The notes beneath the pieces are model-generated. The model was not told the origin of the DNA. It searched no databases and saw only the letters and a program-made list of their open reading frames with translations. A program made the translations under genes and the position numbers. A stretch of DNA of 64,000 nt. It comes from Aphanomyces cochlioides. Its lineage: Eukaryota > Oomycota > Saprolegniomycetes > Saprolegniales > Verrucalvaceae. The stretch lies in assembly GCA_019828595.1 (NCBI GenBank), contig JAHQRK010000009.1, forward strand, positions 1,612,001 to 1,676,000, in the 5' to 3' direction. Below, piece by piece: positions 27,901-64,000 of the stretch (its first letter is position 1; the number at the start of each line of letters is the position of its first letter).

Positions 27901-28132
27901 TAACGACCTAGTCTATGTGCATCGGTCGGTCGTGAAGGCACCTAGCGGTCCTTCGAAGCTTCGCTGTCTTTGGCTGGGGCCTTTTCCTATCAGAAGAATT
28001 GTTAGTCCAGTGGACTATGAGCTCGAACTGCCCAATGACTGGGACATCCATCCCGTCATATACACGGGCGAGCTCAAGAGACACATACCTCGGCTGAGGT
28101 TCTCCAACCTTCAGCTCCTCGAAATGCGTTGA
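24976..28132 (+). pseudogene. Gypsy pol (protease, RT, RNase H, integrase), broken
   Basis: The retropepsin site reads VLIDCGASKNF (DCGA instead of DSGA/DTGA). RT runs from VKKPNGSWRIV through DLRDGFYQIL, then jumps directly to PLRDFAPSYFDDIYVHS, so roughly 45 residues of the palm before the YFDD site are missing in frame. A frameshift near 26373-26400 leads to RNase H (VVCDASVRAIG, TDHASLR, DALSRRP). A TGA at 26994-26996 and another shift precede the integrase: zinc H2C2 region around 27040, core Asp in SMDFIFGLP, Asp in SDRDPRFTS, Glu in SDGQTERANRVLED, ending at 28132. It is not functional. Confidence 0.88.
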
Positions 28133-40565: not shown

Positions 40566-42115
40566 TTACATGACGACCATTGAAAGGATAGCTACCAGCA
40601 CGACTAGTACGTCACCGAACATCAGAATGGCCGAGAGAGTGCGCATTCGTAGCTGCTCGTCGGCTATCAGGAGCTGCAAATAACTCGCACACAAGTGGCT
40701 CCCATCCAAGTAATGGATCGGTAGCGCATTGAAGAGCCCGAGAGATCCTGACACGTTGTACAAAAAGTGCCAAAAGCGCTCGATGCACGTGGGAAAGAGG
40801 ATCCACAACGAAGGATATCCTCGTCTTCGAGGTGCATAATTCGACAGCTCGAGCTCAGCTGACATTTCCGGTGGATATGCATGTAGCATAACAACTCGGT
40901 CGTCTTGCAATCCAAGTCGTATCAATGTGGAAGACTCTATCAGCCGCGGCATAGCACAGATGTTTCCCACAGGACACGGCTCGTGATGACTACACCGAGC
41001 GATGGACTTGTCCCCGACAAGTTTTCCATCCAGACATCTTTGAGATTCATCATTCAGATCTGTGGAAAAACATTCGAGGGGGCTTTCCACATCAGGATTG
41101 CAGCAGGATATATCCGTGATAGTCTTCTCGGGAGCAAAAATGTCAAGAGGAGGCACGCAGTAGCCGTCTCCTTTCCAAGTGGCATTTTGATCCGACAGCA
41201 ATGCCAAGCGCGAAATTTGATGATGCCACTGTGAAATATTCAACGTTGACACATGGTCAACCGATACAATGACATCGCCTGCGAGAAGATCGTCATGAAG
41301 ATTTCAAAAGAGTGGTTTGTACCCACAGAGAGCACGCCTTCAAAGACAGAGTAATCTGGCGTCGACACAACAGCCACGCCTTGATTCAAGACAAACCATG
41401 GCGACAGAAATGTCGATAGCATGGCGAGCTGGATTGCACAGAAGAGTGTCATGACCTACAGCTAGTTGAGGACTCTGCAATCAATCAAGTAGACCTACCG
41501 CATTATGCCAAATCCCTGCGCTTTGAATTTTGATTTGGTCGTTCACGCCAATGTTGTAGTAGCTGTCGAAGCGAACGTAGGCTCCCGGAAACACCACGGC
41601 AAAGAAAATACCGACGGATACGAGACGAATTTCGCTCAGTGCTGCAGCCACTGCATGGCCAAACTCGTGCTACGATTAAGAGCTTCAGGTCAGTGTGCTT
41701 CGGCATATCGAATACGTACAAATGCAACAGCGAGAAAGATTGCAATCCATAGATACCCCAAAGACATGAATGGCAAGGTCACGCCTGGAATCATCACTGA
41801 TGTCGACGACAGCGGTGCTTCTACATCCACTTGAGCAACTGCACGAGCTGCGAGAGCGACAAAGTTCCACAGGAGATAGCATGTGCCGCCAAACATAATC
41901 ATCGCACTGACAACACTTCCAACAGTGAACCAGTTCTTGAGGATCGTGGCGTGTTGTCGACCCAATTCAAACACACGCTCGTTCAACCCTGTGAATTCCT
42001 TCGAAATATATGCAGGGAGAATATACACGCTGTCGTTGGAGCTTCCATGCAGCGCATACTTGATGGAGTACGCTATGGCCCACCCCACGCCAAGGAGAGC
42101 AAGCCACATGGTCAT
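40566..42115 (-). CDS. Site-2-protease-like M50 membrane metallopeptidase, 4 exons
   Basis: Intramembrane zinc protease of the S2P family, 470 residues. Exons 42115-41720, 41669-41499, 41455-41323 and 41278-40566, with introns of 50, 43 and 44 nt, frame-consistent. The zinc site HEFGH opens exon 2, next to membrane segments. GIWHN follows, then a PDZ-like part starting VLSVGDVIVSVDHV and a Cys-rich luminal region. The second zinc-ligand motif is FNALPIHYLDG (LDG), followed by two C-terminal membrane helices. In animals and fungi S2P cleaves membrane-bound transcription factors after site-1 cleavage (family knowledge); the substrate here is unknown. It is divergent from the GPGSY-repeat gene, with 187 bp between starts. 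Confidence 0.88.
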
Positions 42116-43940: not shown

Positions 43941-46900
43941 ATGGTGATGCTGATGAGAAGACTCGTGAGAGGTAGATGTGTCTGGTATGTCGGCTCATCG
44001 TTTTGTAGCAATGCTGACGTGCATTGTCCTCTTCCAACAAGCACACGAAGCCAGAGCGCAAGACTTTGGTAAGACGGTAGGATATACATGTTGATAACAC
44101 CCCTCGCAGGTGCAACATCTATATATGAACCTCGCAAAGATCCTCTCCTCTCCCAAGTGTCTGGCGACGTTGAAGGCATGCTGCAGGAGAATCACCGACG
44201 ACTAACTCTTCAGCAAGCCCCACCCTCGGATCCTTTTCTACTCGGTTCAAACAGTCATGCAAACACCGAGAACTCATTTGATTGTTAGATAACCGTTTTC
44301 TTGGGCAAGTTGTCGTTGAGAGCCATCCGACTTTCGGCTCCGCATCAGTGTCGATTGATTCAGGATCTCGGTTTCATGCAGCCACCAGCGTGGGTCCAGC
44401 TGGTGCTTCCCTTCTTTCCGCCGTCATTCCTACAGCTTCAGACGCCACGTAACTTTATTGCAACCCCTTCTAACTCATTGTATCTTGTAGCGCACTGATC
44501 AACCCTGGCGACGTCATTCTCATTAACCAAGTTGAATTACGAACTGTTGTAACAGTTGCATCAACATCAATTACAGTTGACCGTGGCATTCAACGTGCAC
44601 TTTCTGGTGGTGAAACCATTCTCGTCAAACAAGCGCTACTTTCAGCTTTTGAAGACAACACACCATTGTCACTTATAAACTCCCTTGGGATGGACATCCG
44701 ATCGATTGACTCTCAGTCAGATACCTTGGGCATTCATCCAACTGCCCGAATTCAACATTTCTCTAGTGCCAATGCATCTGCTACCATTCGTGTGCCTGGC
44801 ACTGTTGGCGTAGTGCGTGGTAGTGACTTGGTCTTGACTTCTGCCGACCTGACTGGCATCCTTCGCCCAAATCAGTACATCCGCCTTGCTGGTGGCATTT
44901 ATGTTGTGAGCCCCACCAAGTCTTTCAACTCTACCTCTTTTTATCTCGATCGCCAGTTTACTGGACCTTCTTACACTGGGATGCCACTCTTTATCGAAGG
45001 TTTGGGCACTGCTATGACGCTAAGAGCTTCAGGCAGTGATCTCCTTCAAGCAGCGGCCAGTGTAGATGTGGCATTTGGCCAAGACACCAACTCCGTGTCC
45101 CTCCGACTAGCTACTGCCGACAATACTCAGCAAGCCACATCACTGACAGCACGACTTCAAATTGCTGCTGCTGGCCTTACACTCCTTGGTGGAGCAAACA
45201 CCATTTCAACGGAATTTGATGGACTCAACCTACGATCAGCGAATTATCTTAACATCACGGCTGGGACAGATGAATTCAGTCAACGTGGCGGCGACATTGT
45301 TGTCAAGGCTGGTGATTCAAATGTCAGTCAAGCCGGGAATGGTGGTTCAATATATGTTAGAACCGGCAGCAGCGTATCGGTGAATTCATCTTCTGGTATT
45401 CTTTTTATGGCCAGCGGTCGCAACGACAATGCCTCTTCCGGTACTGTCGAGCTCAGATCTGGTAGTGCAGGACTGGCAAGTGGTGCCGTGACTATTGCGT
45501 CTGGAATGAGCACAACTTCGGACACTGGAAATATTACGGTCAAGACTGGTGTGGCGACGCTTGGTAACAGTGGCAATGTGATCATTGCAACCTCCGACTT
45601 AACAACTGGAACGAAGGCTGGCGATGTGATTTTGAGTGGTGGCAAGAGCGCTCTATCCCAAAGTGGAAGTATTAATTTGAGTGGTGGTGATGGCTCGATT
45701 GGAGGAACGATCAATCTTCGAGCTGGCACCTCAACTTCTTCGTCAAGTGGTGGTAAAATCGTTGTCTCTGGTGGTGGTAGCGCCTCCAGCTCTGGGGGTG
45801 ACATCACATTTTCAGCCGGATCGTCCCAATCAACAAGCTCTGGTGGTAACGTGCTACTAACCTCTGGGGGTAGTGCCTCTGGTGTGAGTGGAAATCTGAT
45901 ATTTTCGTCAAATGTCGCCCAAAGCACTGGCAATATTACACTAACGTCGGGCTCTGCTTCAGCTGGCTCCTCTGGCTCTATGACCATCACAACCGGTGGC
46001 TCAACAGGTGGCCTCTCAGGAGGCATTCTCCTCTCAATTCAAGCGAGTAACACTGGAATTGGTGGCGATGTCAAGATACGAAGCGGTAACTCCATTATTG
46101 GTGGTCCAATTTCTCTTTTTTCTGGCAACTCCACCGGAGGCACATCTGGCTCAGTGACGGTTGGATCAAGTGGCTCTGTAGGTGGTGATTCTGGTACACT
46201 AACATTTTCAACTGGCGCGTCTGTCGGTGGAACTGGTGGGTCTATCGTCGGATCAGTAGGCAATGGCGTCCTTGCAAATGGTGGATCAGTCTCGTTTACA
46301 GCTGGTGCCTCCTCAGTTGCCAACGGTGGCAAGACATCTTTGATCGGTGGTGCAGGTACCAATGGTGGAAACGTTGAGTTGACTGGTGGTGCCGGATCGA
46401 CCTCGAATGGTGGAAATCTTGTTTTAACTACGGGCTCTGCTGCTTCAACTGCGACAACAGGTACATTTACACTTAGCTCAGCGTCTGGAACAACTAGCGG
46501 ATTTATTCAACTTAGAACTGGTAACGCCACGAGTGGCCCTGGTGGCACGATTGCATTATCTGCCGGCAGTTCTACCACTGGAAATGGTGGAAGTATTATC
46601 GCGACGAGTGGAGCTGGTGTTGTAAGTGGACCTGTGTCGATTTCAAGTGGATCTTCAACTGGCGGTGCATCTGGTATGGCGACATTGACCACTGGTGCCT
46701 CCAATGGTGGTGATTCAGGATCTGTGTCGATTGCGACTGGCAATGCTGTTGGTGGTACAGGTGGCAGTATTGCTCTGTCTGTTGGTGGTGGCGTGGTCGG
46801 CAATGGCGGTCAAATTTCTTTAACTTCTGGCTCAAGTAGTGTTGCGACTGGTGGTAAAACTGTTTTAACAGGTGGTATTGGAACTGTTGGTGGCAATATT

Positions 46901-49900
46901 GAACTGAATGGTGGTGCCGGCTCGACTTCGACTGGTGGTGCGATTTCATTGCTTTCTGGTTCTGGTGCTGCTTCGTCTTTCAGTGGTCCTATTGCTATTA
47001 ACACAGCGAACGCAGTTACGAGTGGTTCGATACAATTGAGAACTGGTACAGGATCCAATGGTGCTGGTGGCAATATCGTGTTATCAATTGGTACAAGTTC
47101 GAATGCGACAGGTGGTGCGATCAATGTGAACAGTGGTGTTGGTGTTGCTGGTGGGTCGATTGGGATTGCGAGTGGAGCATCAACTGGTGGCACTTCTGGC
47201 TCATTGACGATTGGATCAAGTGGCTCAGTCGGTGGTGATTCTGGTACACTAACATTTTCAACTGGCGCGTCTGTCGGTGGAACTGGTGGGTCTATCGTCG
47301 GATCAGTAGGCAATGGCGTCCTTGCAAATGGTGGATCAGTCTCGTTTACAGCTGGTGCCTCCTCAGTTGCCAACGGTGGCAAGACATCTTTGATCGGTGG
47401 TGCAGGTACCAATGGTGGAAACGTTGAGTTGACTGGTGGTGCCGGATCGACCTCGAATGGTGGAAATCTTGTTTTAACTACGGGCTCTGCTGCTTCAACT
47501 GCGACAACAGGTACATTTACACTTAGCTCAGCGTCTGGAACAACTAGCGGATTTATTCAACTTAGAACTGGTAACGCCACGAGTGGCCCTGGTGGCACGA
47601 TTGCATTATCTGCCGGCAGTTCTACCACTGGAAATGGTGGAAGTATTATCGCGACGAGTGGAGCTGGTGTTGTAAGTGGACCTGTGTCGATTTCAAGTGG
47701 ATCTTCAACTGGCGGTGCATCTGGTATGGCGACATTGACCACTGGTGCCTCCAATGGTGGTGATTCAGGATCTGTGTCGATTGCGACTGGCAATGCTGTT
47801 GGTGGTACAGGTGGCAGTATTGCTCTGTCTGTTGGTGGTGGCGTGGTCGGCAATGGCGGTCAAATTTCTTTAACTTCTGGCTCAAGTAGTGTTGCGACTG
47901 GTGGTAAAACTGTTTTAACAGGTGGTATTGGAACTGTTGGTGGCAATATTGAACTGAATGGTGGTGCCGGCTCGACTTCGACTGGTGGTGCGATTTCATT
48001 GCTTTCTGGTTCTGGTGCTGCTTCGTCTTTCAGTGGTCCTATTGCTATTAACACAGCGAACGCAGTTACGAGTGGTTCGATACAATTGAGAACTGGTACA
48101 GGATCCAATGGTGCTGGTGGCAATATCGTGTTATCAATTGGTACAAGTTCGAATGCGACAGGTGGTGCGATCAATGTGAACAGTGGTGTTGGTGTTGCTG
48201 GTGGGTCGATTGGGATTGCGAGTGGAGCATCAACTGGTGGCACTTCTGGCTCATTGACGATTGGATCAAGTGGCTCAGTCGGTGGTGATTCTGGTACACT
48301 AACATTTTCAACTGGCGCGTCTGTCGGTGGAACTGGTGGCGGGATTAATGTTGCAGTTGGTAATGGAGTTGTGGGTAATGGTGGATCTGTTTCAATCATT
48401 TCTGGCGCAAGCACAGTTGCTGCTGGTGGTCGAGTTGCCATCAGTGCTGGAAATGGTGTGGTTGGTGGAAACATCGCTTTGACAGGAGGCAGTGCCACAT
48501 CCTCTGACGGTGGCAATGTCATCGTGTCAAGCGGGACTTCAGCAGCATCAAGTGGATCCATAACATTAAAGACTCCAAATGCTAACAACAGTGGGGGAAT
48601 TCAACTCTCGTCTGGCGCAGGTACTGGTGGATCCGGCGGCAATCTGGACTTTTTAGTTGGAAATGGCACATCAGGTATTGGTGGCGCCATTACAATGAGC
48701 AGTGGTGGCAATGTTATTGGTGGTCCAATTATGGTAACCAGTGGAGTCTCAACTGGCGGTAACTCAGGCAATATTGCTTTGGCGTCTGGGGCTGCATCTG
48801 GTGGCAACTCTGGCCTTGTCGTCATTTCTTCTGGAGCATCTGCTACTGGTAATGCTGCAGGTGTGCGATTGTCTGTAGGCTCTGGAGTTGGTGTTGGGGG
48901 TGACGTTACCCTTGTCTCTGGTTTAAGCTCAAGTACCAATGGCGGAAAAATATCATTAACGGGCGGCACTGGCACATATGGGGGCAACATAGAAGCCAGC
49001 GGTGGTATTGGCGTATCCAACAATGGAGGCAATGTTGTTGTGATCAGCGGTGCAGCCGCGACAGGATTTACCAGTGGTGCTGTTGCTGTCAGCTCAAGCA
49101 CTAGCAGCACAAGTGGATCTGTTCAGCTTCAATCTGGCGGTGCAAGCAATGGTCCAAGTGGTTCAGTCACGATAGCCACAGGATCAGCAAGTTCAGTCGG
49201 TGGAATCATCAACATCAGCAGCGGAAATGGTGCAACAGGGGGACCAGTTTCGATTACTACAGGTGTATCTTCGAATGGTGCATCTGGTGCTTTATCGCTT
49301 GGTTCAGGTGGTTCCAATGGTGGCTCATCAGGGGCAGTATCCCTATCAACTGGCGCAGCTCTTGGTGGTACGGGTGGAGCGATCACTGCTACTGTCGGAA
49401 ACGGTGTGTTAGGCCTCGGTGGATTAATTACATTCACTGCTGGTGCCAGTTCAGCATCTACTGGTGGCAAGACCTCACTTCTCGGTGGTTCCGGGACAAA
49501 CGGTGGAAACGTTGAACTGACCGGTGGTGCAGCGACAACCAGTGTTGGCGGTAACCTTAACCTTATGTCTGGTACTGGTGCTGCGTCGTCTGGAAGCGGC
49601 TTGATTAGTATTGGCACGTCAGGAGGAAGCACGAGTGGCTCAATTCAGCTGAGGACAGGAAACGGCACTGCCACCTCGAGTGGCTCAATCATTTTGTCTG
49701 TCGGTTCTGCAACGACTGGAGCAGGTGGGGCAGTGAACATCAACAGTGGATCTGGTGTGGCTGGTGGTGCAGTGTCAATAACAAGTGGCGCATCGTCAGC
49801 AGGAGCTTCTGGCTCGTTGTCAATTGGTTCCGCTTCTTCGACTGGTGGCGACTCAGGATCTTTGATTTTTACCACAGCAAACTCAATTAGCGGTGGAGTC

Positions 49901-52900
49901 GGTGGATCGATACTGCTCTCTGTTGGAAACTCGTCCGTTGGGGCTGGTGGCCCAGCGATGCTGACTGCTGGTAAGAGTGCTGCTTCTGCTGGTGGGCAAG
50001 TGTCCATTGTCGGTGGATCTGGAACCCTTGGTGGAAATATTCAGCTGACAGGTGGTTATGGAGTGGCCGGTGATGGTGGTGATGTTTTGCTATCAACTGG
50101 TGGTGGAGCTGGCCAAGCAATGAGTGGCGATATTGTGTTAAGCACAGCTTCAGATTGGACTAGCGGAATGATTCTCCTGAACACTGGCTCAGCAACTGGC
50201 GGAACTGGTGGGGGTATCCATGCCTCTGTCGGTGTAGGAGTCAACGGAACAGGAGGGGCTATCAGCTTCTCTAGTGGAAGCTCAACTTCTGGAGGCCCTG
50301 TCACAATTATCAGTGGTGGCTCTTCCGCTGGAGCCTCTGGAGCTGTGTCTCTACAATCCAGTGTGTCAACTGGTAGCACATCTGGTGCAGTGACATTGAG
50401 CTCTGGAGCCTCTTCTGGAGGATCCGGCGGTGCAATAAGCGTCCTAGTTGGAGACGGCGATACTAGTTCTGGTGGCCAAATTTTATTCAAGGCTGGGTCC
50501 AGCTCAGTATCTACTGGTGGCAAAATAACAATGACGGGTGGTTCTGGCACCATTGGCGGCCGATTGGAGTTATTTGGAGGTAATGGATCTTCAAGCAATG
50601 GTGGAAGTATCAGTCTCGTCAGTGGATTTGGCGAGAATTCTGCATCAAGTGGCTCTGTTACTGTATCAACGTCAAGTGGGGTAACTGGCGGCCAAATAGG
50701 TCTCATTTCTGGAACAAGTACAAGTGGTCCTGGTGGTGCCATCTCTCTCTCAGTTGGTGCATCGGTTAGTGATTCTGGTGGCTCAATGACCATCAGCGGT
50801 GGCAGTGGTCAAACTGGCGGCCCACTTTGCATTGCGAGTGGTGGGTCAACATCTGGCGATTCTGGAATTATCAATTTTGGCTCTAGTACATCTACTGGAG
50901 GCAACTCTGGAGCAATAACAGTATCATCTGGCTTTGGAAACGGCGGAAGAGGCGGAAACATAGCCTTGAGTGTTGGCAATGGAAGCACTGGAATTGGTGG
51001 CATCATCAGTCTTACATCAGGATTAAGTGCTGACCAAGCTGGTGGGAAAGTATCATTAAATGCTGGCTTTGGAGCAACAATTGGTGGCAATGTCGAGGTG
51101 ACCGGGGGCGGTGGTCAAGGCAATGGGGGCAATGTTATGCTGACAGGAGGAAGCGGGACAAGTGGGACAGGCGGTATGCTTGTTTTGACCTCCGGAGCCA
51201 GCTCAACTCTGGGCTATACTGGAGGCATTTCAGTTGCTTCTGCCAATGGTATATCAAGCGGATCGATACAATTGAGCTCAGGCCTTGCATCGAACGGTCC
51301 AGCTGGTTCAATTCGTCTGTCCATTGGAAATGGCTCCTCTGGAGCAGGTGGCGCAATTAGTTTGTCCAGTGGATTATCCTCAAGTGGGGGAAATGTGTCC
51401 ATTGCAAGTGGTGGCTCAACAGCTGGAGCATCAGGATCTCTTCTCTTAAACACAGCATCTGCAACCGGTGGCTCGTCCGGTCCAGTGCAAGTATCGACAG
51501 GAGCGTCTACATCAAGTGGGACTGGTGGTGACATCACTGCCACTGTCGGAAACGGTGTGTTAGGCCTCGGTGGATCAATTACATTCACTGCTGGTGCCAG
51601 TTCAGCATCTACTGGTGGCAAGACCTCACTTCTCGGTGGTTCCGGGACAAACGGTGGAAACGTTGAACTGACCGGTGGTGCAGCGACAACCAGTGTTGGC
51701 GGTAACCTTAACCTTATGTCTGGTACTGGTGCTGCGTCGTCTGGAAGCGGCTTGATTAGTATTGGCACGTCAGGAGGAAGCACGAGTGGCTCAATTCAGC
51801 TGAGGACAGGAAACGGCACTGCCACCTCGAGTGGCTCAATCATTTTGTCTGTCGGTTCTGCAACGACTGGAGCAGGTGGGGCAGTGAACATCAACAGTGG
51901 ATCTGGTGTGGCTGGTGGTGCAGTGTCAATAACAAGTGGCGCATCGTCAGCAGGAGCTTCTGGCTCGTTGTCAATTGGTTCCGCTTCTTCGACTGGTGGC
52001 AATTCTGGCATTATTTCTCTTTACACTGGAGCTGCAACTTCAAGTGGATCAGCAGGAAATATAACAATGGCGATTGGAAACTCCCAAACTGGAGTTGGTG
52101 GGACGATCATTGCCACAGCAGGCGCAAGTAGCGCCACCACGGGAGGCTCTTCATTCGTTGTTGGTGGTGTCGGCTCTGTTGGTGGCACTGTTAATTTAGT
52201 CGGTGGTGCTGGTAATACAGGAGCTGGTGGCAATGTCCAATTACTTTCAGGATCTGGTACGAATCCAGGATCAAGTGGAAATATTATTTTGAATACTGTA
52301 CTTGGCGCAACGAGCGGAAGTATTGCTTTGACCACTGGTGCAGCAAGCGTTGGAGCCAGTGGAAGCATCCGCGCAAGTGTTGGAGCTGGAACTACCGGCA
52401 CAGGAGGAGATATCACTCTTCTCAGTGGAAATTCTCCCACGGGTGGCCCGGTAAAGATCATCAGTGGTAATTCAAGTTCAGGATCATCAGGCATGATATC
52501 TCTCACATCTGGTGCATCAACCGGCGGAGACTCTGGTGCACTCCTTTTTACCACTGGGTCGACCACGGGAGGTGCCGGAGGCCCAATTTCCTTGTTGGTT
52601 GGACCAGGAGATTCTAAAAATGGGGGCGACCTAACTCTTCAAGCCGGATTGGCCTCTTCAGCCGTCGGTGGTCGAGTCATCACAGTTGGTGGAAATGGTT
52701 TGACTGGTGGATCAGTACAATTAAACGGCGGTGCAGGTTCAAATGGAAATGGTGGTGGCGTTGTCTTGTCCAGTGGAGTTGGTGATTCTGCGTCTACAAG
52801 TGGTGCAGTGTCAGTGACGTCAGCATCTGGTAGTACGAGTGGAGCCATTACCTTATCTACAGGTGCCTCTACATCCGGGCCAGGTGGTTCAATTTCCCTC

Positions 52901-55900
52901 TCAGTTGGCTCTTCCCAGGCTGCCACTGGTGGTGCCGTCACCATTAACAGTGGCGCTGGTGTTATCGGTGGTGTATTAAGCTTGACAAGTGGTCTATCCT
53001 CTGGTGGTGTGTCTGGTGGAGTGAATATTGCGTCGAGTCCATCAGCTGGGGGAAACACTGGACCTGTCGTCATCTCGTCAGGTGCCAGCGTTGGCGGCAC
53101 AGGAGGAGGAGTCATGTTATCAGTTGGAAGAGGTGCCACTGGTCTTGGTGGAGCCATAACAATTTCAGCCGGTGAAAGTGGAGATCAAATTGGCGGTAAA
53201 ACTTCAATACTTGGTGGTAATGGGGTAACCAGTGGTGGAAATGCCGAAATTGTGGGTGGAACTGGGCAAACAAGTGGAGGAAATATTCTTCTGAATGGCG
53301 GAGCTGGATCATCTGACGTTGGAGGCAGCATCAGCATGACAACCGGTGGTAGTACTACCTTGGGACTCACTGGCAGTATAAGTTTGTCTTCGGCAGCCGG
53401 CCTTTCCAGTGGGGCAATCCAACTTTCAACTGGTATGGCATCGAATGGACCAGTTGGCTCTATTAGAATCAATTCTGGAACTGGAAGTGTGGGCAATGGT
53501 GCTTCAATTACATTGTCTTCTGGTACTGCTCCTGTCGGTGGGCCTCTTTCGTTGACAAGTGGTGCATCAACGGCTGGAGCTTCTGGATCGATTGTATTAT
53601 TTTCCGCTGGAGCTGCTGGCGGGTCAAGTGGAAGTATCCGACTTTCTACAGGATCTTCAAACTCGAGCGGCACTGGTGGCGATATCACCGGAGTTGTTGG
53701 CCAGGGAGTAGCTGGAGTTGGTGGCACTGTGACATTTACTGCAGGCGCAAGTTCGGTCTCAACTGGTGGTAAAACCTCCCTTGTTGGAGGTGCTGGTACT
53801 GTTGGTGGAAATGTCGAACTGACAGGCGGTTCTGGGGCAAGTGGCACGAGTGCGACAAACGCTGGGGGCAGCATAAATATTGTGTCTGGCATTGGTGCAG
53901 CAACTGCTTCAAGTGGCTCAGTCATCATAAACTCTCCTACCGGAAGTTCAAGTGGGCAAATTCAGTTGCGAACAGGATCCGGCTCAACAGGCTCTGGTGG
54001 TTCGATAACTTTATCAATTGGAACGGGATCAAGTGGTGGTGGTAATATTGCCTTGGCAAGTGGCGCTGGTGCTTCTGGAGGCTCCATTGGTTTGACAGCT
54101 GGCTCATCTACAAATGGTGTGTCTGGTGCAGTGAGTATTGCTACAAGTGCGTCTTCAGGAGGCACATCTGGTGGTGTTGTGATTACAACTGGAAGCTCCA
54201 CCTCTGGAGGCACCGGAGGAAGTATAACCGCTGTTGTTGGAAATGGCGTCTCTGGTGCAGGAGGGACCGTCTCACTCACTTCCGGTGCTAGCTCGGTTTC
54301 AGTTGGTGGCAAGACGTCTCTTGTTGGTGGTTTGGGCACAATTGGGGGTAACGTTGAGCTTACTGGCGGTGCAGGGTCTACTACCTTCGGAGGAAATATT
54401 GTAATTACAAGTGGAGCAGGCTCACCATCCTCGTCAAGCGGAGGTGTAACGATTGGAACGCCATCTGGAAGTCTTTCTGGAGCAATTGCATTACAAACTG
54501 GAACCAGTTCAAGTGGCTCTGGTGGTGCAATTGGATTTTCTGTTGGCTCTTCGGGTACAAGTTCAGGTAGCACAATTAATCTCAAGAGTGGAGACGGTGG
54601 AGTTGGTGGCGATATCCGAGCTATCACAGGTGCATCGACGACAGGAAATTCTGGCTCCATTTCCCTTTTGTCAAGTCAATCTAGCGGTGGTAATAGCGGC
54701 AGTATTGCTATCACAACAGGAACCGCTACAGGTGGCAAATCTGGCGATATTACCGCATCAAGTGGCACAGGTGATACTGGAAATGGAGGCAGTATTGCAT
54801 TAATTGCAGGAAATTCAAGTGCCGCATTTGGTGGCAAAACCAGCTTATTCGGTGGTATTGGTAATGCTGGAGGAAATGTTGAACTCACAAGTGGTACCGG
54901 TTTAACAACAAACGGTGGTGATGTATCCCTTACTAGTGGTAGTGGGACTGCTTCGACTGGAAATATTCGAGCGATTACATCTGCAGGAACAACTTCAGGC
55001 TCGATGATCTTAAGAACAGGTACAGCGTCAAGCGGACTCAGTGGATCTATTGGATTATCGGTTGGCTCAAGCTCGTCTGGTACAGCTGGCAGTATTACTT
55101 TATCGAGTGGCGATTCTGTCACTGGTGGTGCCATATCACTGTACAGCGGAAGCGCAAGTGGTGGCCCATCTGGTGGTATCAGCTTGACTACCAACACAGC
55201 CATTGGGGGTAATAGTGGCTTAATATCGCTCGTGTCTGGACAGTCTACAAGTGGTGGTACTGGTGGCGGCATTACTGCAACTGTTGGCAATGGAGTTGCT
55301 GGTACTGGAGGGTCTGTATTGCTCACAGCTGGGCTCAGTTCTTCTGCAAGTGGCGGAGACATCTCCCAAGCAGGTGGTATTGGATCAATTGGTGGTAATG
55401 TTATTTTGACTGGTGGCCTTGGCAACATTGGTGTTGGTGGTAATGTGGCTCTTTCTGGTGGAGTAAGTAATTCAGCAACTGGTGGCTTCATAACTCTTGC
55501 AAGTGGTGTTGGCTCAACTACTGGAAGAATTTTGATCGGTTCTGCCTCAGGTGTGGCTAGTGGAGCAGTTTCACTGTCAACAGGAGCCAGCTCGGCTAGT
55601 CCAGGAGGAAGCATTACAATCAGCGTTGGCTCTGGTGCGTCCAGTGCGGGTGGTGATGTCAACATTCAAAGTGGGGCATCAGTTGCAGGCGGATCCGTAC
55701 TTTTGAGCAGTGGGTCATCCACGAATGGGTTATCTGGAGCTATCTCTGCATCTACAAGTACCGCCACGGGTGGCAACTCTGGAGGGGTAACTCTTGCAAC
55801 AGGCAACTCTGCAAGTGGCGGCACGAGCGGTAACATTCTTGTTTCTGTGGGTTCGGCTGCAACAGGCACTGGTGGTCAAATCAGACTAAATGCAGGAAAC

Positions 55901-58900
55901 GGACCATCTGGTGGTTTAGTTTCTATACTCAGTGGAACATCGTCTGCAGGTAATTCTGGCGGTATTTCGATCTCAACAAGTGTGGCTGTTGGCGGCACAT
56001 CAGGTTCCATTACCCTATCCACTAGTGGAGTTACCGGTGGCTCTTCTGGTTCGATTTCTGCAGCTGCTGGCACTGGATCAAGTGGCACAGGTGGTTCTGT
56101 TTCTATCACTGCAGGGGCATCTGTTAGCGGTGGTGCTATTTCTCTGCTCAGTGGAATGGCATCGAATGGACCCTCGGGGGCAATTTCCTTGTCGTCGAAT
56201 TCTGCATCCGGTGGGAATTCAGGTGCCATTAGTCTTTCGACGGGCACTTCAACTGGCGGTATTGGTGGTGCTATTACTGCTTCCGTTGGTCTTGGAACAA
56301 ACGGAACCGGAGGTTTAATGTCTTTTACTGCAGGTAACTCTGCAGTTGGTGGGGCCGTTTCCATTAAGAGCGGAGCATCTACGGCAGGTGCATCAGGCGC
56401 GATCAGTATCTCTACAGGAATTGCTGCCGGAGGAGCTTCTGGTGCTATTCAACTATCGTCAGCGATGTCTAGTGGTGGAGCTGGTGGAAGTCTTTCTGGA
56501 ATTGTTGGTAGCGGCACAGTTGGTACTGGTGGCTCTATTTCATTTACTGCTGGGGCAGCTCCAATTGGAGGCTCAATTACACTTGCAAGCGGTTCTTCTT
56601 CAGCCGGCACTTCTGGTGGTGTGTCATTGTCTTCAAGTACTTCTGTCGGTGGCAGCTCTGGTGGAATTTCAATTGCAACAGGAAGTGCAACTGGTGGCAC
56701 TGGCGGCTCTATTACTGCAACAGTCGGAAATGGTGCTTCTGGAGCAGGTGGTTCTGTAGCTATTTCAGCTGGTTTAGCTCCTTCCGGTGGTTCTTTGAGT
56801 GTATCAAGTGGAGCCTCCAGCGCAGGAGACTCGGGCTCTGCTGCGTTCGGCTCAAACTCAGCCGTCGGTGGCAATTCGGGATTGCTTTCTCTTTCCACTG
56901 GTAGCTCCTCCGGTGGCAACGGGGGCAATGTAGTCATTTCAGTTGGAACTGGCGATCGAGGAACTGGCGGAAAGGTTCAAGTTTCAGCTGGTGGCGCCCC
57001 TTTAGGTGGTCCACTTACTATTGCTTCAGGCGTATCCAGTGCTGGTGAGTCTGGCGCGACAACAATCTCTTCTGGTGCTGCCTCTGGTGGCTCATCTGGC
57101 GTACTAACAATGGCAACTGGTGCAACAGATACTGGGTCAGGTGGAAATGTTGTCATTCAAGTCGGCAATGGTGTCAGTGGTGTTGGTGGTTCCATTTCCT
57201 TGGCCGCTGGGAAAAATGTCGTAGGTGGCGACGTATCTCTACTTACGGGTGAGTCTTTAGCTGGTGCCTCTGGTAGTTTGTATCTTTCTACAAACACTGC
57301 AACTCAAGGAAACTCTGGAGCCATCCAAATTGTCTCGGGACAAGCTCATGATGCAGCGGGGGGTGCTATTAGCCTTTCCGTAGGCTCAGGGCTGGTAGGA
57401 CCAGGAGGATCTTTAAGTTTAGCCTCTGGATCAGGTGTTGCAGGAGGTGGAATATCAATTGCAACTGGTGCGTCAACTGCTGGCGTTTCAGGAAATATTA
57501 ATCTCAAGACAAGCGATGCTGTTGGGGGAAACTCTGGCGGAATCTCCGTTTCTTCAGGCGGATCAAATACTGGAGTTGGCGGTGATATTACAATTTCAGT
57601 CGGAGCTGGCACCAGCAATAATGGTGGTGCAATTTTACTCTCTTCTGGCCAATCTGTAACTGGCGGTTTGATTCAGCTCATAAGTGGAGCTTCTACGAAT
57701 GGCGATTCTGGGGCTATATCTTTGTCATCGAGCAATTCAGCAGGTGGAAATTCTGGTGCCCTCACGTTTGTATCTGGATCAGCAACTGGTGGCCGAGGAG
57801 GGAGTTTGGGTCTCTCAGTCGGATCCTCAGTACTTGGGACTGGCGGCAGCGTGTCAATTGTATCTGGTTCATCAGTCACTGGGGGGCCGATATCTTTGCG
57901 CACAGGTGCATCAACAGCCGGTCAATCAGGAGCAATAACTTTGTCCACAAGCCCGTCAGTTGGTGGCTCTTCAGGCGGTGTTTTGCTTTCTACAGGTGCT
58001 GCCAGCGGTGGAACTGGCGGCTCAATTACTGGCTCAGTTGGAAGTGGCGTGTCTGGAATTGGTGGTTCGATATCTCTTACAGCTGGTTCAAGTACTGTAT
58101 CAACTGGAGGCAAGTTTTCTGCCACAGGAGGTGTCGGATCTGCTGGAGGCAATGTTGAGCTAACAGCGGGCTCAGGATCGCTAAATTCTGGCGGTCAAAT
58201 TGTATTGACTGGCGGCTCCAGCTCAAATGCAATTGGTGGCGGTATTTCATTATCCTCCGGAGCTGGGGCGACTTCGTCCACAAGTGGAAGCATTAATCTG
58301 AGTACAGTTGGTGGTAGTACTTCTGGAATGATTAGCTTGACAACTGGCACTGGAAGTGTGGGTGTTGGTGGTGGCATCGCCTTATCTGTCAGTGCAGGTA
58401 CACTTGGCACTGGTGGTGCGGTTTCGATTCGAAGTGGTACTTCAACAGTTGGTGGGCCTGTTTCGCTAACATCTGGAGCTTCGACGGCCGGCAACTCTGG
58501 CTCAGTTTCAATTGCGTCTTCTGCAGCGACAACCGGCAATTCGGGTAACGTACAAATTCTCACAGGCTCATCGACAGCCGGGGGTCAAGGTGGCGATATC
58601 ACAGCAACAGCTGGAAACAGTGTTGTGGCCATCAGTGGGGCTGTTATCCTTACAGCAGGCAGTACTTCAGCGTCATCCTCTACAGGGGGAAGATTTTTGG
58701 CAAATGGCGGTCAAGGCTCGACTGGTGGTACTGCTCAAATTATTGGTGGCACTGGATTAAATAACGTCGGAGGCAGTGTACAACTTACAGGTGGCAGCAG
58801 CCAAACTTCCACTGGTGGGCAAATTGGTTTAGTGAGTGGCTCCGGAGCTTCAAACGCTGTCAGTGGTGCACTAACCCTCTCCACGTCAACCGGTAGCGTG

Positions 58901-61900
58901 AGTGGAGCTATCAGTATATCAACAGGAGTCAGCAGCTCCGGGGCTAGTGGTGCAATCGGCTTATCTGTGGGGACGAGTTCAGCTGGACTAGGAGGTTCAA
59001 TTTCTCTGAAAAGTGGTGACAGTGTTGTTGGTGGCCCCTTAACCTTTACAAGTGGTGTATCCTCAGCAGGTGCTTCAGGAAATATCGCAATATCATCTGC
59101 AGCGTCAACGGGTGGCAACTCAGGTCAACTGGCTTTAAACACTGGCGCGTCAAGTGGAGGAAGGGGTGGTGATATCCTGCTTTCCAGTGGATCAGGATCA
59201 ACAGGTCTAGGAGGTGCAGTTTCAATTTCATCTGGAACTAGTGCAGCCTCTATAGGAGGAAAAACATCTCTCTTTGGTGGAACTGGGACCTCTGGTGGCA
59301 ATATTGAATTAACTGGTGGCTCTGGCAATTCTGGTGCTGGTGGTGATATTGTTATTGGCAGCGGTATTGGCTCTACCCCAGCACAGAGTGGTGTTATTAA
59401 TTTGTTTACCAGTGATGGTGCAACTTCAGGAGCATTGAGGTTGACAACAGGAGCTGCTGCGTCCGGTGCTGGTGGTAGTATACGATTGTCTATTGGTGTT
59501 GGTACATCAGGTGCTGGTGGAGATATCACTTTGTCAAGTGGCAACTCTGCTGTTGGTGGAGCACTTAATATGGCTAGTGGTGTTTCGACAGCAGGAATGT
59601 CTGGTGGCATATCCTTCACAACAGGATCGTCTGTCGGTGGCAACTCCGGCAATCTGCAGATGGCTTCTGGAACAGCTAGTGGTGGCACTGGTGGAAGTTT
59701 AATTGGGCTAGTTGGAAACGGTGACACAGGTATTGGTGGTGCTATTACGTTTACCGCTGGGTCTAGTTCTGTATCAACAGGTGGCAAAAGTTCGCTCCTT
59801 GGTGGGAGCGGTACTGTTGGTGGTGATGTTGCTTTGACAGGTGGCTCTGGATCGGCTGCAACAGGGGGCCAATTATCTCTTACCAGTGGCTCTGGAGCCT
59901 CCACATCGTTTAGTGGGCCGATATCACTAAATACCCCAGCTGCGTCAATGTCAGGGGCAATTTTGCTTTCCACAGGGGCAGCCAGCTCAGGCTCAGCTGG
60001 ATCTATATCGGCATTAGTTGGTGCTTCCAACTCAGGCACAGGTGGAGCTCTGAGCATACTAAGTGGTGCTGGTGTTACTGGTGGCCCCGTCAGTTTGACA
60101 AGTGGTCTGGCTTCAGCTGGAGCATCAGGCTCAGTGACTCTATCTTCTGGTGTTGCCAGTGGGGGGAATTCAGGAACTATTACAATCAGTTCAGGTGCCG
60201 TCTCGACTGGAGGAACTGGTGGCAGTATTTTTGGCACAGTTGGAGCAGGTGCTCTTGGAATTGGTGGTTCGATTACATTTACTTCTGGTAGCTCATCTGC
60301 TTCAACTGGTGGTAAAATGTCTATCTTTGGAGGTGCTGGTGCTGCGGGTGGTAATGTTGAGCTAAATGGTGGATCTGGAAGTACATCCTCCGGTGGCAAC
60401 ATTATTGCGGTTACAGGTATCGCTGGTACATCATCCACGAGTGGCAGTATCACACTTAGCACTTCAAATAGTAGTGTGTCGGGCTCCATTCTATTCAGGT
60501 CAGGGATTGCCTCGAGTGGAACAAGTGGCGCCATTGCGGCGTCAGTCGGATCCAGCACAACTGGCGCTGGTGGACCAATCGGTTTATCGAGTGGCAGTGG
60601 CACAATCGGTGGTCCAGTATCGATATCAAGTGGTGCATCATCATCCGGAGCTTCTGGTAACTTACTTTTAACGTCGGCTGGCTCAACGGGTGGAAACAGT
60701 GGTGCTATCAGCTTGAATACTGGCGTAGCAACTGGTGGAACCGGTGGCTCAATTATTGGCACAGTTGGAAACGGCGTTTTAGGTAATGGTGGCATGGTTT
60801 CGTTCACTAGTGGAGCTAGCTCAGTTGCAATTGGTGGTAAGGTTTCTTTGATTGGTGGTTCTGGAACTGTGGGTGGCAACGTCGAGCTCACAAGTGGTGC
60901 AGGCTCTTCAACATTTGGTGGTGACATAATTCTTACAAGTGGTGCTGCCTCAAGCAATTCTGTCACAGGCAACATCGTGCTCAGTACACCAAGCACATCC
61001 TCAACTACCGGTGGATCTATTTCAATTAAGTCTGGCTCATCAAGTGGAAGTGTTGGTGGAACGATCAATCTCTCTGTTGGTGGAGGCTCTGTTGGAACAG
61101 GAGGTGCCGTGCGAATTACAAGTGGAAATTCGGTGAATGGAGGTGATTTTGCCGTTTCTTCTGGTCTTTCATCAGCTGGCCAATCTGGTATGGTTTCTTT
61201 GTTATCTGGTGCATCAACTGGTGGTGATTCTGGTAGCCTTCAATTGGTATCTGGGCCAGCTACTGGGGGACGCAGCGGTGGTATAAGTGCTGCTGTTGGC
61301 ACCGGCTCCTTGGGTGCTGGTGGTAGTATCTCGTTGACAGCAGGCTCATCCGTGATTGGAGGTGCAATGCTCTTAACAAGTGGTGCCTCATCCGCTGGAA
61401 ACTCGGGTGCAATTACTATTAGCTCAAATACAGCAACGGGTGGAAACTCTGGAGCTATCTCGTTACTATCAGGAGCATCATCTGGTGGTACAGGTGGAAG
61501 CATTATTGCGACGGTTGGTTCTGGAGCCTCAGGAAACGGAGGAGTTGTTAGCTTCACTGCTGGCTCCAGTTCTGTAGCTACAGGAGGTAAAAGCTCCATC
61601 GTTGGTGGCAGTGGTACCTCTGGAGGAGATGTAACGATAACTGGTGGAGCAGGAACGTCCACAAATGGTGGTGGCATTACTTTGCAATCTGGTGTTGGAG
61701 CCTCATCAGGACTCAGCGGCAACATCAGCTTGAGTACAGTTGATGGAGCATCATCTGGTTTCTTAACCCTCGCAAGTGGAGCTGGCACAGGTGGCGCTGG
61801 AGGAAATATTCTAGTATCCGTGGGTGCTGCTTCAACTGGTACAGGAGGATCATTAACCCTGAATAGTGGAAATGGTGCGAATGGGGGTCCACTTGCAATT

Positions 61901-64000
61901 TCAAGTGGGGTGTCTACTGCCGGAAGCTCTGGCGCCATCCTTGTGAACAGCGGTTCATCTATTGGTGGAGCGTCCGGTGCTTTAACATTTATCTCTGGAT
62001 CTTCAAGCAATGACGTGGCAGGCGATATTATCGCTACTGTGGGGAATGGCTCCCCTGCCGCCACGGTCCCAGGGGGACTCGTCGCCATTACCGCAGGTGG
62101 AAGTTCTACTTCAACTGGTGGTAGAATTTTGTTGACTGGTGGGGCTGGAACAATTGGAGGAAACATTGCTCTCCAAGCGGGATCGACAGCTGCTGGAAGT
62201 ATGGGGGGTAATATTCTCTTGACAAGTGGTAACGGTGCCACCGGATCGGGGGGCAACATTGCTCTACTTAGTGGCACTAGTTCAACTCTTGGTCAAAGTG
62301 GGGCCCTGACTTTTTCTACAGCTCCTGGCGTATCCTCTGGCTCTATCCAAGTCTCAACCGGCACTGCATCAAATGGACCAGTTGGAAGTGTAGCTTTGTC
62401 AGTTGGTGTTGGCAGTGTTGGACAAGGCGGATCGATGCAATTATCAGCCGGAAATTCTGTCAGCGGCGGAGGCGTGTCTATTGGAAGTGGAAGCGCTTCT
62501 GGTGGAGCCTCTGGAGCAGTCCTTTTGAGCTCAGCTGGTGCAACTGGTGGCGCATCAGGTCTATTGTCCTTAAGTACTGGCGCAGCAACCGGTGGTGCTG
62601 GAGGAAATATTGTCGCTTCAGTTGGCAGCGGTGACGGAGGAAATGGGGGGTTAATATCTCTCACCAGCGGCCAGAGTTCCTCGGGTATCGGTGGAAAACT
62701 ATCCCTTACAGGGGGGTCAGGCCAAACTGGTGGTAACGTCGAAGTTACTAGTGGACCCGGCGCATCGGCAAATGGTGGTGATGTTCAGATTAAGAGTGGT
62801 GTTGGAGCTGCAACTGCTGCAAGCGGTGCAATTAGCGTCACTACAGCCAATGGCTCGACATCCGGAGCGATATCATTAAGAACTGGAAGCGGAAATGGTG
62901 GCCCAGGCGGTGCAATCGCTATGTCGGTCGGTGGAAGCAGCACAAGTACAGGCGGTACGATCACTTTGAGCAGTGGCGTAGGTGTCACTGGAGGTGGCCT
63001 TTCAATCTCCAGTGGAGCTTCTACCGCTGGGGCCTCTGGGGCTCTTGCAGTTGCATCAAGCGCATCGTCAGGTGGAAATTCCGGAGCAATTGCAATTACT
63101 ACTGGTGCATCGACCAGTGGCGGAACTGGTGGTACAATTACAGCCACTGTTGGCAATGGTGTTTCTGGCAATGGCGGACTCTTGTCACTCACGGCAGGAG
63201 CAAGCAACAGCGCTATTGGTGGCAAAGCATCCATTAATGGTGGAAATGGTTCTGTTGGTGGCAATGTAGAACTCAACGCTGGCACAGGGTCAAGTACTCT
63301 AGGCGGTAATGTACTGGTTTCGAGTGGTGCTGGCGCAAGCTCATCAACGAGTGGCTCCATTAACTTACTTACCACCGGTGGCAGCACAAGTGGTGCGATA
63401 TCATTGAGCACTGGAGCTGGAACTAGTGGTCCTGGTGGCAGCTTGTTGCTTTCCGTTGGGAATGGAACCACAACAATCGGTGGCAGTGTCTCGGTTGCCT
63501 CGGGACAAAGTGCAACAGGTGGTCCTCTGACTTTGACAAGTGGTGCTTCTACTGCAGGCACCTCAGGAACTGTTTCAATTCAGTCTGGTGCATCAGCAGG
63601 TGGAAACTCTGGATCCCTTTCGATAGCCTCGGGTGATGCCACTGGTGGTGCCGGTGGAGCCATCGCAGTTACAGTTGGCACTGGTGCACAAGGTACTGGC
63701 GGCAGCTTTACTGTGACAGCGGGTTCTAGCGCGGTTGGTGGTGGTGGTTTGAGCTCGATGGTTGGGGGCGCCGGTGTTGCAGGTGGCAACGTTCAGCTCA
63801 CTGGTGGTACAGGCTCAACTTCCAATGGAGGCTCCATTGGCTTGAAGAGTGGCGACGGTTCTACAGTCAGCGGCAGTATAACTGTATCATCCAGCTCTGT
63901 TGGCTCAAGCAGTGGACCTATTGGACTTTCCACTGGAGCTTCTGCGGGCTCTGTTGGCAGCATTACAGTCTCAGTCGGTGCATCTACCGGTGGCGATGGC
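43941..64000 (+). CDS. Giant secreted Gly/Ser/Thr-rich repeat protein, 3' end outside window
   Basis: Exons 43941-43971, 44009-44068, 44110-44253, 44289-44448 and 44491-beyond 64000 (introns of 37, 41, 35 and 42 nt; all phases agree). The start gives a classical signal peptide: MVMLMRRLVR, hydrophobic AMLTCIVLF, cleavage-like ARA before QDFG. After about 130 residues of ordinary sequence, and a region to about 45250 with some non-repeat character (VDVAFGQDTNSVSLRLATAD), the protein becomes almost pure Gly/Ser/Thr/Ala/Val/Ile repeats, e.g. GGSISLTSGSS, every 16-18 residues. The frame stays open for 19.5 kb in one exon, at least 6,635 residues so far. Cys is essentially absent. Regular hydrophobic positions between GG/SG turns suggest a beta-solenoid. 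A role in cell-surface or cyst-coat adhesion, as for the giant repeat glycoproteins of oomycete spores, is inference. Long Pro-rich frames on the other strand are shadows. Confidence 0.85.
46181..48340 (+). repeat. Perfect 1,050-bp tandem duplication inside the giant exon
   Basis: The sequence from about 46181 recurs at +1,050 without visible differences (for example 46201 versus 47251), and a third copy begins at 48301 before diverging near 48338. The shift of 350 codons preserves frame. Identity at synonymous sites points to a recent duplication or gene conversion, or to an assembly effect. Confidence 0.85.
49381..52001 (+). repeat. About 470-bp near-identical dispersed pair, 2,151 bp apart
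   Basis: 49381 to about 49851 and 51532 to about 52002 are almost identical (both contain GTCGGAAACGGTGTGTTAGG; early differences are CTACTG/CCACTG and TTAATT/TCAATT). The distance of 717 codons keeps frame. Confidence 0.8.

What the first reader, a model, noticed from the sequence alone, without database searches (positions are those of the whole stretch)
43941..64000. Giant signal-peptide-bearing gene with a single exon of at least 19.5 kb
Four tiny exons (one with a clear signal peptide) feed an exon that stays open to the window edge, at least 6,635 residues of Gly/Ser/Thr-rich solenoid-like repeats. Almost all other introns in this region are 34-50 nt, so such an exon stands out. A secreted protein above 600 kDa with near-zero Cys and heavy potential O-glycosylation would be a major surface or matrix component. 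I know of no close described equivalent.
Basis: partly seen in the sequence, partly recalled or inferred. Interest (0 to 1): 0.9.

Follow-up and report, generated by a model that had tools for sequence, protein, structure and literature searches.

The report
Megadalton secreted fibre gene, one exon
A water-mould-like microbe carries a gene whose last exon alone is about 40,000 letters long and encodes what looks like a secreted, rope-like protein of about 13,500 amino acids, a member of a little-known family of giant proteins that also has a relative in another water mould.

Summary
The window lies in a held 76.2-Mb assembly; read past the window edge, the frame stays open for 13,390 codons and ends in TAA. 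Three or four small 5' exons supply a signal-like peptide; the product is about 13,513 aa, 1.19 MDa, 5 Cys. It behaves as protein-coding sequence: 0 stops in 13,384 codons against 452-503 in shuffles, and pN below pS in 13 of 13 module pairs of 60-95% identity. The body is a chain of ~15-residue Gly/Ser/Thr coils, 12 per 175-aa module, closed by a separate C-terminal cap. A second giant locus in the genome (C7, ~100 kb) and a Lagenidium giganteum protein share coils and cap. The C7 locus and one further relative also carry Peptidase_S74 (phage-fibre chaperone) domains; the window gene has none. Best reading: a secreted beta-solenoid fibre, roughly 0.4 um or longer, of the cell or spore surface.

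The parts
43941..43971 (+).
   Evidence: In frame with the rest, 13,516-aa product; not decided without RNA
43987..44068 (+). First exon in the simpler model; signal-like peptide MSAHRFVAMLTCIVLFQQAHEARA
   Evidence: hydropathy maximum 2.87 over 11 residues
44069..44109 (+). Intron, 41 nt, GT..AG
44110..44253 (+). Small exon 2
44254..44288 (+). Intron, 35 nt, GT..AG
44289..44448 (+). Small exon 3
44449..44490 (+). Intron, 42 nt, GT..AG
44491..64000 (+). Giant last exon, window part; continues to contig C89:1,696,646 (40,156 nt in all, stop included)
44492..45394 (+). Non-repetitive N-terminal domain (residues ~130-430; borders approximate)
   Evidence: No Pfam, PHROG or NCBIfam family for 44492-45295; no whole-protein relative found
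44783..44950 (+). Small module inside the N-domain, weakly similar to a stretch of a giant FN3-type frame on contig C1 (E 1.1e-5) and of a frame on C26 (E 0.0017, overlapping range)
46325..64000 (+). Coil region, zone 1 of 175-aa (12-coil) modules from residue 741; runs past the window edge to residue ~7990, where zone 2 of shorter modules begins
46130..47289 (+). Recent internal duplication, first copy (second copy 47180-48339, 99.3% identical)
49365..49849 (+). Recent internal duplication, first copy (second copy 51516-52000, 98.6% identical)

Best explanation
The gene encodes a secreted, megadalton fibre protein. Read from sequence: a signal-like peptide; a ~400-residue non-repetitive N-terminal part; about 860 coils of mostly 13-16 residues, [GS]-G-x-[IV]-x-[LI]-x-x-G-x-[SGA]-x-x-G-x; 12 coils per 175-aa module; two zones (33 full-length modules at residues 741-7986, then mostly 98-130-aa modules to ~13,250); a C-terminal cap of ~200 residues shared with a paralogue and an oomycete homologue. 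Inferred: each coil is one rung of a beta-solenoid (Ile/Leu packed on one face, Ser/Ala/Gly on the other, Gly at the turns), so the chain is a rod of about 0.41 um at 4.8 A per rung, or about 0.8 um if half-coils are the rungs of a three-chain beta-helix; the cap ends or joins the rod; the rod is displayed outside the cell, most likely on spores or cysts, as a hair, spine or coat; length changes in evolution by duplication of whole modules. The three-chain version rests on the paralogue and P0003, which carry S74 chaperone domains among the same coils; the window protein has none.
For: Intact 13,390-codon frame; stops, codon-position and pN/pS tests; signal-like peptide; coil and module periodicity and invariant Gly columns in 24 two-module pieces; cap shared with C7 and Lagenidium P0002, 41 and 42% identity; coils shared with C7, P0002 and P0003; S74 domains over the curated cut-off in the C7 frame and in P0003; two recent whole-module-scale duplications; charged residues only ~3% of the coil zones and only 4 weak membrane-like hydropathy windows after the signal. 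Analogy of form: 16-residue beta-solenoid coils of ice nucleation proteins (PMC10727499, passages).
Against: No structure prediction could be run and no solved structure matches by sequence (best E 0.16). No S74 domain in the window gene, so trimerisation is not supported for it directly. No expression or location data. For Saprolegnia hooked hairs the authors' own candidates are fibronectin-III and thrombospondin proteins, not coil proteins (PMC5771568); a known Phytophthora mastigoneme protein is a 64-kDa EGF-type protein (PMC12223298). Coil-like sequence could be disordered or glycosylated instead of solenoidal.
Confidence: 0.6

Rival explanations
1. A stored vesicle glycoprotein, like the >400-kDa PnLpv proteins of Phytophthora large peripheral vesicles, which enter the secretory route but are normally retained in the cyst.
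For: PnLpv is of very high mass and sits in zoospore vesicles (PMC3869178, passages); a signal-like peptide fits vesicle cargo as well as secretion.
Against: Only ~3% charged residues and rigid-looking coils suit a fibre better than a store (inference). PnLpv sequence was not compared.
Confidence: 0.15
2. A mucin-like, heavily O-glycosylated, largely unfolded coat or adhesive in which the Gly/Ser/Thr repeats serve as sugar carriers.
For: Ser+Thr about 31% of residues and few Lys/Arg.
Against: The strict [IV]-x-[LI] and invariant Gly positions and the 12-coil module are more order than a mucin needs; Pro is only 0.97%. Glycosylation could still decorate a solenoid.
Confidence: 0.15
3. A gene taken over from a virus, phage or bacterium: the coils plus S74 chaperone are a tail-fibre module captured by the host.
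For: S74 domains in the C7 paralogue and in P0003; the same genome holds 46 further S74 sites, many in repeated 746- or 750-aa frames that look like integrated virus-like elements.
Against: Fitted spliceosomal-type introns, a signal-like peptide, and an oomycete homologue. No viral or prokaryotic relative found with five viral-contig scans and one genome scan, though tblastn is weak on such repeats.
Confidence: 0.08
4. Not a gene: a satellite or assembly artefact that happens to lack stops.
For: Repetitive at protein level, with two near-identical internal duplications.
Against: Old modules have pS around 0.6-0.7 yet keep frame over 40 kb; pN<pS in 13 of 13 pairs of 60-95% identity, pairs that share modules and so are not independent; no tandem array with a unit of up to 500 bp at 40000-64000; cap conserved in another species.
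Confidence: 0.02

Closest known systems
Lagenidium giganteum hypothetical protein N0F65_003511 (P0002)
   Same: Same coils (E 2.7e-24, 49% identity over 9% of the query) and same C-terminal cap (42% identity); oomycete by taxonomy.
   Different: Database model is 1,705 aa: coils and cap fill about its first 700 residues and the rest matches importin-13-like profiles weakly (below Pfam cut-offs), so it looks like a truncated and fused model. It is closer to the C7 locus (48% over 684 residues) than to the window gene.
P0003, unnamed 1,767-aa protein (NCBI source)
   Same: Coils recognised by the window's own module profile (12 stretches).
   Different: Carries three Peptidase_S74 domains; no cap seen; organism not known.
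Bacterial ice nucleation proteins
   Same: Tandem 16-residue coils forming a beta-solenoid with a C-terminal cap, assembling into thin fibres (PMC10727499, passages).
   Different: About 65 coils in the example described there against ~860 here; no sequence relation shown; water-organising TxT motifs were not tested here.
Phage tail spikes and fibres with S74 intramolecular chaperones
   Same: Repetitive beta-rich fibre plus S74 domain is the layout of the C7 paralogue and P0003 (S74 as a self-cleaving chaperone: PMC7582827, passages).
   Different: Window gene has no S74; phage S74 usually sits at the C-terminus (recalled), in C7 it is internal; far longer here.
PnLpv of Phytophthora nicotianae; giant FN3 proteins of Saprolegnia cysts (SPRG_19863, 9,440 aa)
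   Same: Very large secretory-route proteins of oomycete spores or cysts (PMC3869178 and PMC5771568, passages).
   Different: The SPRG proteins are FN3-type; PnLpv sequence was not seen. No coil repeats mentioned in the passages read.

Membership tests
Coil-and-cap giant family (window gene, C7 locus, Lagenidium P0002; defined here) | Coil array recognised by one module profile | tested here: met
   Profile built from the window gene hits C7 end (9 stretches) and P0002 (6 stretches); own-genome search with P0002 hits both loci
Coil-and-cap giant family (window gene, C7 locus, Lagenidium P0002; defined here) | Conserved C-terminal cap | tested here: met
   41 and 42% identity to the window cap; shared ITHSGATSLT-like stretch and YD..Y.C end; C7 E 2.9e-14
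S74 (endosialidase-chaperone) fibre proteins | Peptidase_S74 domain (PF13884) | tested here: not met
   None of the 48 sites in the own genome lies in the window gene; two lie in the C7 paralogue
Bactofilin (PF04519) | Profile match over the curated cut-off | tested here: not met
   Cap scores 18 bits against a cut-off of 27.9
Beta-solenoid proteins | Solenoid fold | not testable with these tools
Ice nucleation proteins | Sequence similarity to a solved or modelled member | not tested
   No ice nucleation sequence was compared; Pfam scans of the pieces gave no such family
PnLpv | Sequence similarity to PnLpv | not tested
   No PnLpv sequence was fetched
Secreted proteins | N-terminal signal peptide | tested here: inconclusive
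   Hydrophobic, signal-like start in both gene models; no trained predictor available, start not proven

The most novel reading that the evidence does not exclude
A eukaryotic lineage builds micrometre-scale extracellular hairs or spines from single giant beta-solenoid chains, or three-chain beta-helices, whose length is written in the gene as the number of modules, with phage-type S74 chaperones used in the sister protein to register and perhaps cut the chains. The sister locus on C7 would encode about 33,700 residues if it is one intact gene, near titin size (titin size recalled).
Probability: 0.2. Interest if true: 0.88.

Novelty: new variant of a known kind. Interest (0 to 1): 0.7.

Why it matters
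A 40.2-kb coding exon and a 1.19-MDa predicted secreted protein are extreme for a eukaryote (comparison recalled). The pieces scanned match no Pfam, NCBIfam or PHROG family above a curated cut-off or convincing E-value. If it is a surface fibre, it is a concrete candidate for the unidentified material of oomycete spore and cyst structures; for Saprolegnia hooked hairs the authors state that the composition is still to be found (PMC5771568, passages). It also shows how such proteins can be overlooked: tryptic peptides of 7-35 residues cover 1,450 of 13,489 residues, and the one named database relative looks truncated and fused. The S74 link is a testable bridge between phage-fibre assembly and eukaryotic surface fibres.

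Tried and rejected
Viral or prokaryotic source: viral-contig scans with the cap, a coil piece, the N-domain, a second coil piece and P0003 gave no relative by tblastn; one prokaryote-genome scan with a coil piece gave none. These are weak negatives, since six short peptide patterns per scan and a repeat-shy tblastn can miss such repeats. N-domain as query among proteins of 3,577-11,380 aa: none of 836 scored candidates at E<=0.001; shorter or longer relatives were outside that search. Bactofilin match of the cap: below cut-off, rejected. Solved structures: best E 0.16 (a plant ribosome-inactivating protein), then nanobodies, phycocyanin and the like; chance level. S74 in the window gene: looked for, absent. 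Satellite or artefact: rejected (the tandem-repeat program's longest period is 500 bp, so it could not see the 525-bp module or the 1,050-bp spacing, which one search covers). Papers: all ten searches listed no paper that, by title and start of abstract, describes such a coil protein in an oomycete; the library lacks most subscription journals and preprints, so this is no proof of absence. Passages were read in PMC12223298, PMC3869178, PMC5771568, PMC4576200, PMC10727499, PMC7582827; PMC5768655 gave no passage for my terms (79); no paper was read whole. Sizes of titin and of other giant proteins, the 4.8-A rung spacing, and the S74 catalytic SDxRxK motif are recalled.
Full report
Observation. 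The window is C89:1612001-1676000 of a 76.2-Mb, 94-contig assembly. The reported exon is open to the window edge. I fetched 30 kb downstream and read on: the stop-to-stop frame 44474..84643 has 13,390 codons and ends in TAA. With exons 43987-44068, 44110-44253, 44289-44448 and 44491-84646 the product is 13,513 residues, 1.19 MDa, pI 5.2, G 26%, S 19%, T 12%, A 11%, 5 Cys, 47 N-x-S/T sites. Only RNA can choose.

Is it coding? In 13,384 codons there are 0 in-frame stops; ten dinucleotide shuffles give 452-503, and ten more have longest open runs of 187-288 codons; the five other real frames reach at most 704 codons; G+C by codon position is 0.52/0.70/0.33. A self-comparison of the exon at E<=1e-20 finds four pairs, of which two are recent duplications (1160 bp at 99.3%, 485 bp at 98.6%); the others are 524 bp at 73% and 110 bp at 93%. 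Tandem Repeats Finder lists nothing for 40000-64000, but its longest period is 500 bp. Ungapped comparison of 525-base stretches from 50 module starts gives 43 pairs above 55% identity; the 13 between 60 and 95% have mean pS 0.57 and mean pN 0.23, with pN<pS in 13 of 13. The pairs share modules and are not independent. Old, diverged modules thus keep frame and protein sequence over 40 kb, which a satellite would not do.

Anatomy. After the signal-like peptide comes a non-repetitive part (exons 2-3 and residues ~130-430), then coils. Identity at lag 15 and lag 175 is 0.267 and 0.228 against a composition baseline of 0.153. In 413 coils of exactly 15 residues the pattern is [GS]G-x-[IV]-x-[LI]-x-x-G-x-[SGA]-x-x-G-x; positions 1, 2, 4, 6 and 9 are partly fixed by the anchor pattern used to cut coils, whereas the small residue at 11 (99% G/A/S/T) and Gly at 14 (64%) are not. 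767 anchors were placed; counting spacings of 27-31 as two coils and 43 as three gives about 860. Twelve coils make the 175-aa module. The final module profile has 105 hits: 33 full-length ones between residues 741 and 7986, and 53 in residues 7990-13,260, of which 48 span 98-130 residues and 5 span 27-29; the other 19 are partial or lie before or across these zones. An alignment of 24 two-module pieces of the window has invariant Gly columns along most of its length. The last ~220 residues form a separate cap ending in CSQGDLKYDTTNLYICVGSTYKKVQYTAW.

Relatives in the genome. With the first 509 residues of the exon frame as query, 47 matches fall on C89, C7 and, for the N-domain only, C1 (84 of 139 candidates scored). 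With P0002, 96 matches fall on C7 and C89 (28 of 465 candidates scored). These are lower bounds, so further coil loci are not excluded. The C7 locus starts with a signal-like peptide and a PSI domain (27.8 bits, cut-off 23.1); frames of 1,448, 16,528, 1,712, 4,543, 3,878 and 5,573 codons (33,682 in all) cover C7:369,808 down to 268,880 nearly end to end. Between 365.47 and 365.19 kb and near 315.6 kb intron-like GT..AG stretches are visible; in the DNA printed for the junctions near 310.55 and 285.6 kb I see no intron, and the junction near 297 kb was not read. Whether this is one intact gene is open. Its cap matches ours (43% over residues 2-117, E 2.9e-14).

Relatives outside. The third protein search found two hits at E<=1e-10 among 8,000 scored candidates: P0002 of Lagenidium giganteum (Oomycota, Pythiales) and an unnamed P0003 with three Peptidase_S74 stretches. 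P0002 has the same cap. The cap search found one protein at E<=0.001 among 8,000 scored: P0001, an unnamed ENA entry (E 4.3e-11, 30% identity over 47% of the query). The N-domain search found none. In the own genome the N-domain has weak matches on C1 (E 1.1e-5), C26 (0.0017) and C4 (0.25).

Mechanism. The coil pattern, Gly at presumed turns, and alternating Ile/Val and Leu/Ile positions suggest a beta-solenoid (inference; no structure could be predicted). The nearest design I read about is the 16-residue coil of bacterial ice nucleation proteins, whose individual fibres are up to a few hundred nm long (PMC10727499, passages). At 4.8 A per rung (recalled) 860 coils give about 0.41 um. The C7 paralogue and P0003 place S74 domains among the same coils; S74 is described as a self-cleaving intramolecular chaperone of phage fibres (PMC7582827, passages, whose reference list cites a structure paper on triple-beta-helix folding). 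T4 gp5 is a three-chain beta-helix with an eight-residue repeat (PMC4576200, passages). If the coils were such a helix with half-coil rungs, the length would be about 0.8 um. The window gene has no S74, so for it the trimer is only a possibility.

Place of action is inferred. Saprolegnia hooked hairs were not ruptured by trypsin and their composition is called a research challenge; the authors' candidates are fibronectin-III and thrombospondin proteins (PMC5771568, passages). A Phytophthora mastigoneme protein is a 64-kDa EGF-type protein (PMC12223298, passages). PnLpv is a >400-kDa vesicle glycoprotein that is normally retained (PMC3869178, passages). The window protein has 208 Lys+Arg in 13,489 mature residues; 72 of 206 predicted tryptic peptides are 7-35 residues long and cover 1,450 residues, so trypsin-based proteomics would largely miss it.

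Species. 'Oomycete' fits the one named relative, but no phylogenetic test was made.

Verdict. Observation confirmed and extended; interpretation partly supported; a new giant fibre-type family, filed as a new variant of a known kind because beta-solenoid and S74-assisted fibres are known, whereas this size, host type and coil-and-cap design were not found described.

Noticed in passing
G000:C7:268880-369808, minus strand (L032, L033, L034, L044, L045): Paralogous giant locus: coils over ~100.9 kb in six nearly abutting frames (33,682 codons), PSI domain at the start, two internal S74 domains, an array with a 1,212-bp period around 271-296 kb, same cap at the end. At least two frame changes without a visible intron; not mended.
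   Followed up: partly
G000, 46 further S74 sites, e.g. L038-L043: Peptidase_S74 in many near-identical frames (six of 746 aa, fifteen of 750 aa); in L038 and L039 an opposite-strand frame that looks capsid-like to me (not tested) lies beside it, so probably a family of integrated virus-like elements. Described only.
   Followed up: no
G000:C1:1316729 (L025): An 8,720-codon open frame with fibronectin type III domains that shares a small module with the N-domain of the window gene; recalls the giant FN3 proteins reported from Saprolegnia cysts (PMC5771568).
   Followed up: partly
G000:C26:106876-107124 (L027): A frame that looks TPR-rich by eye contains a stretch weakly similar (E 0.0017) to the same small N-domain module.
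   Followed up: no
window 59125-61068, minus strand, and others: Long antisense open frames inside the exon (up to 704 codons) are most likely a by-product of the sense-strand codon make-up.
   Followed up: partly
window 13466-14875 (-), 18479-19804 (+), 24976-28129 (+): Mobile-element genes near the giant gene: NDC10_II/GCR1_C (Crypton-like, recalled), MULE transposase, and reverse transcriptase plus integrase.
   Followed up: no
window 40569-41252 (-) and L004:740-1468 (+): Flanking genes: a Peptidase_M50 upstream, and downstream a frame that resembles CDC50/LEM3 (recalled, no family search).
   Followed up: no
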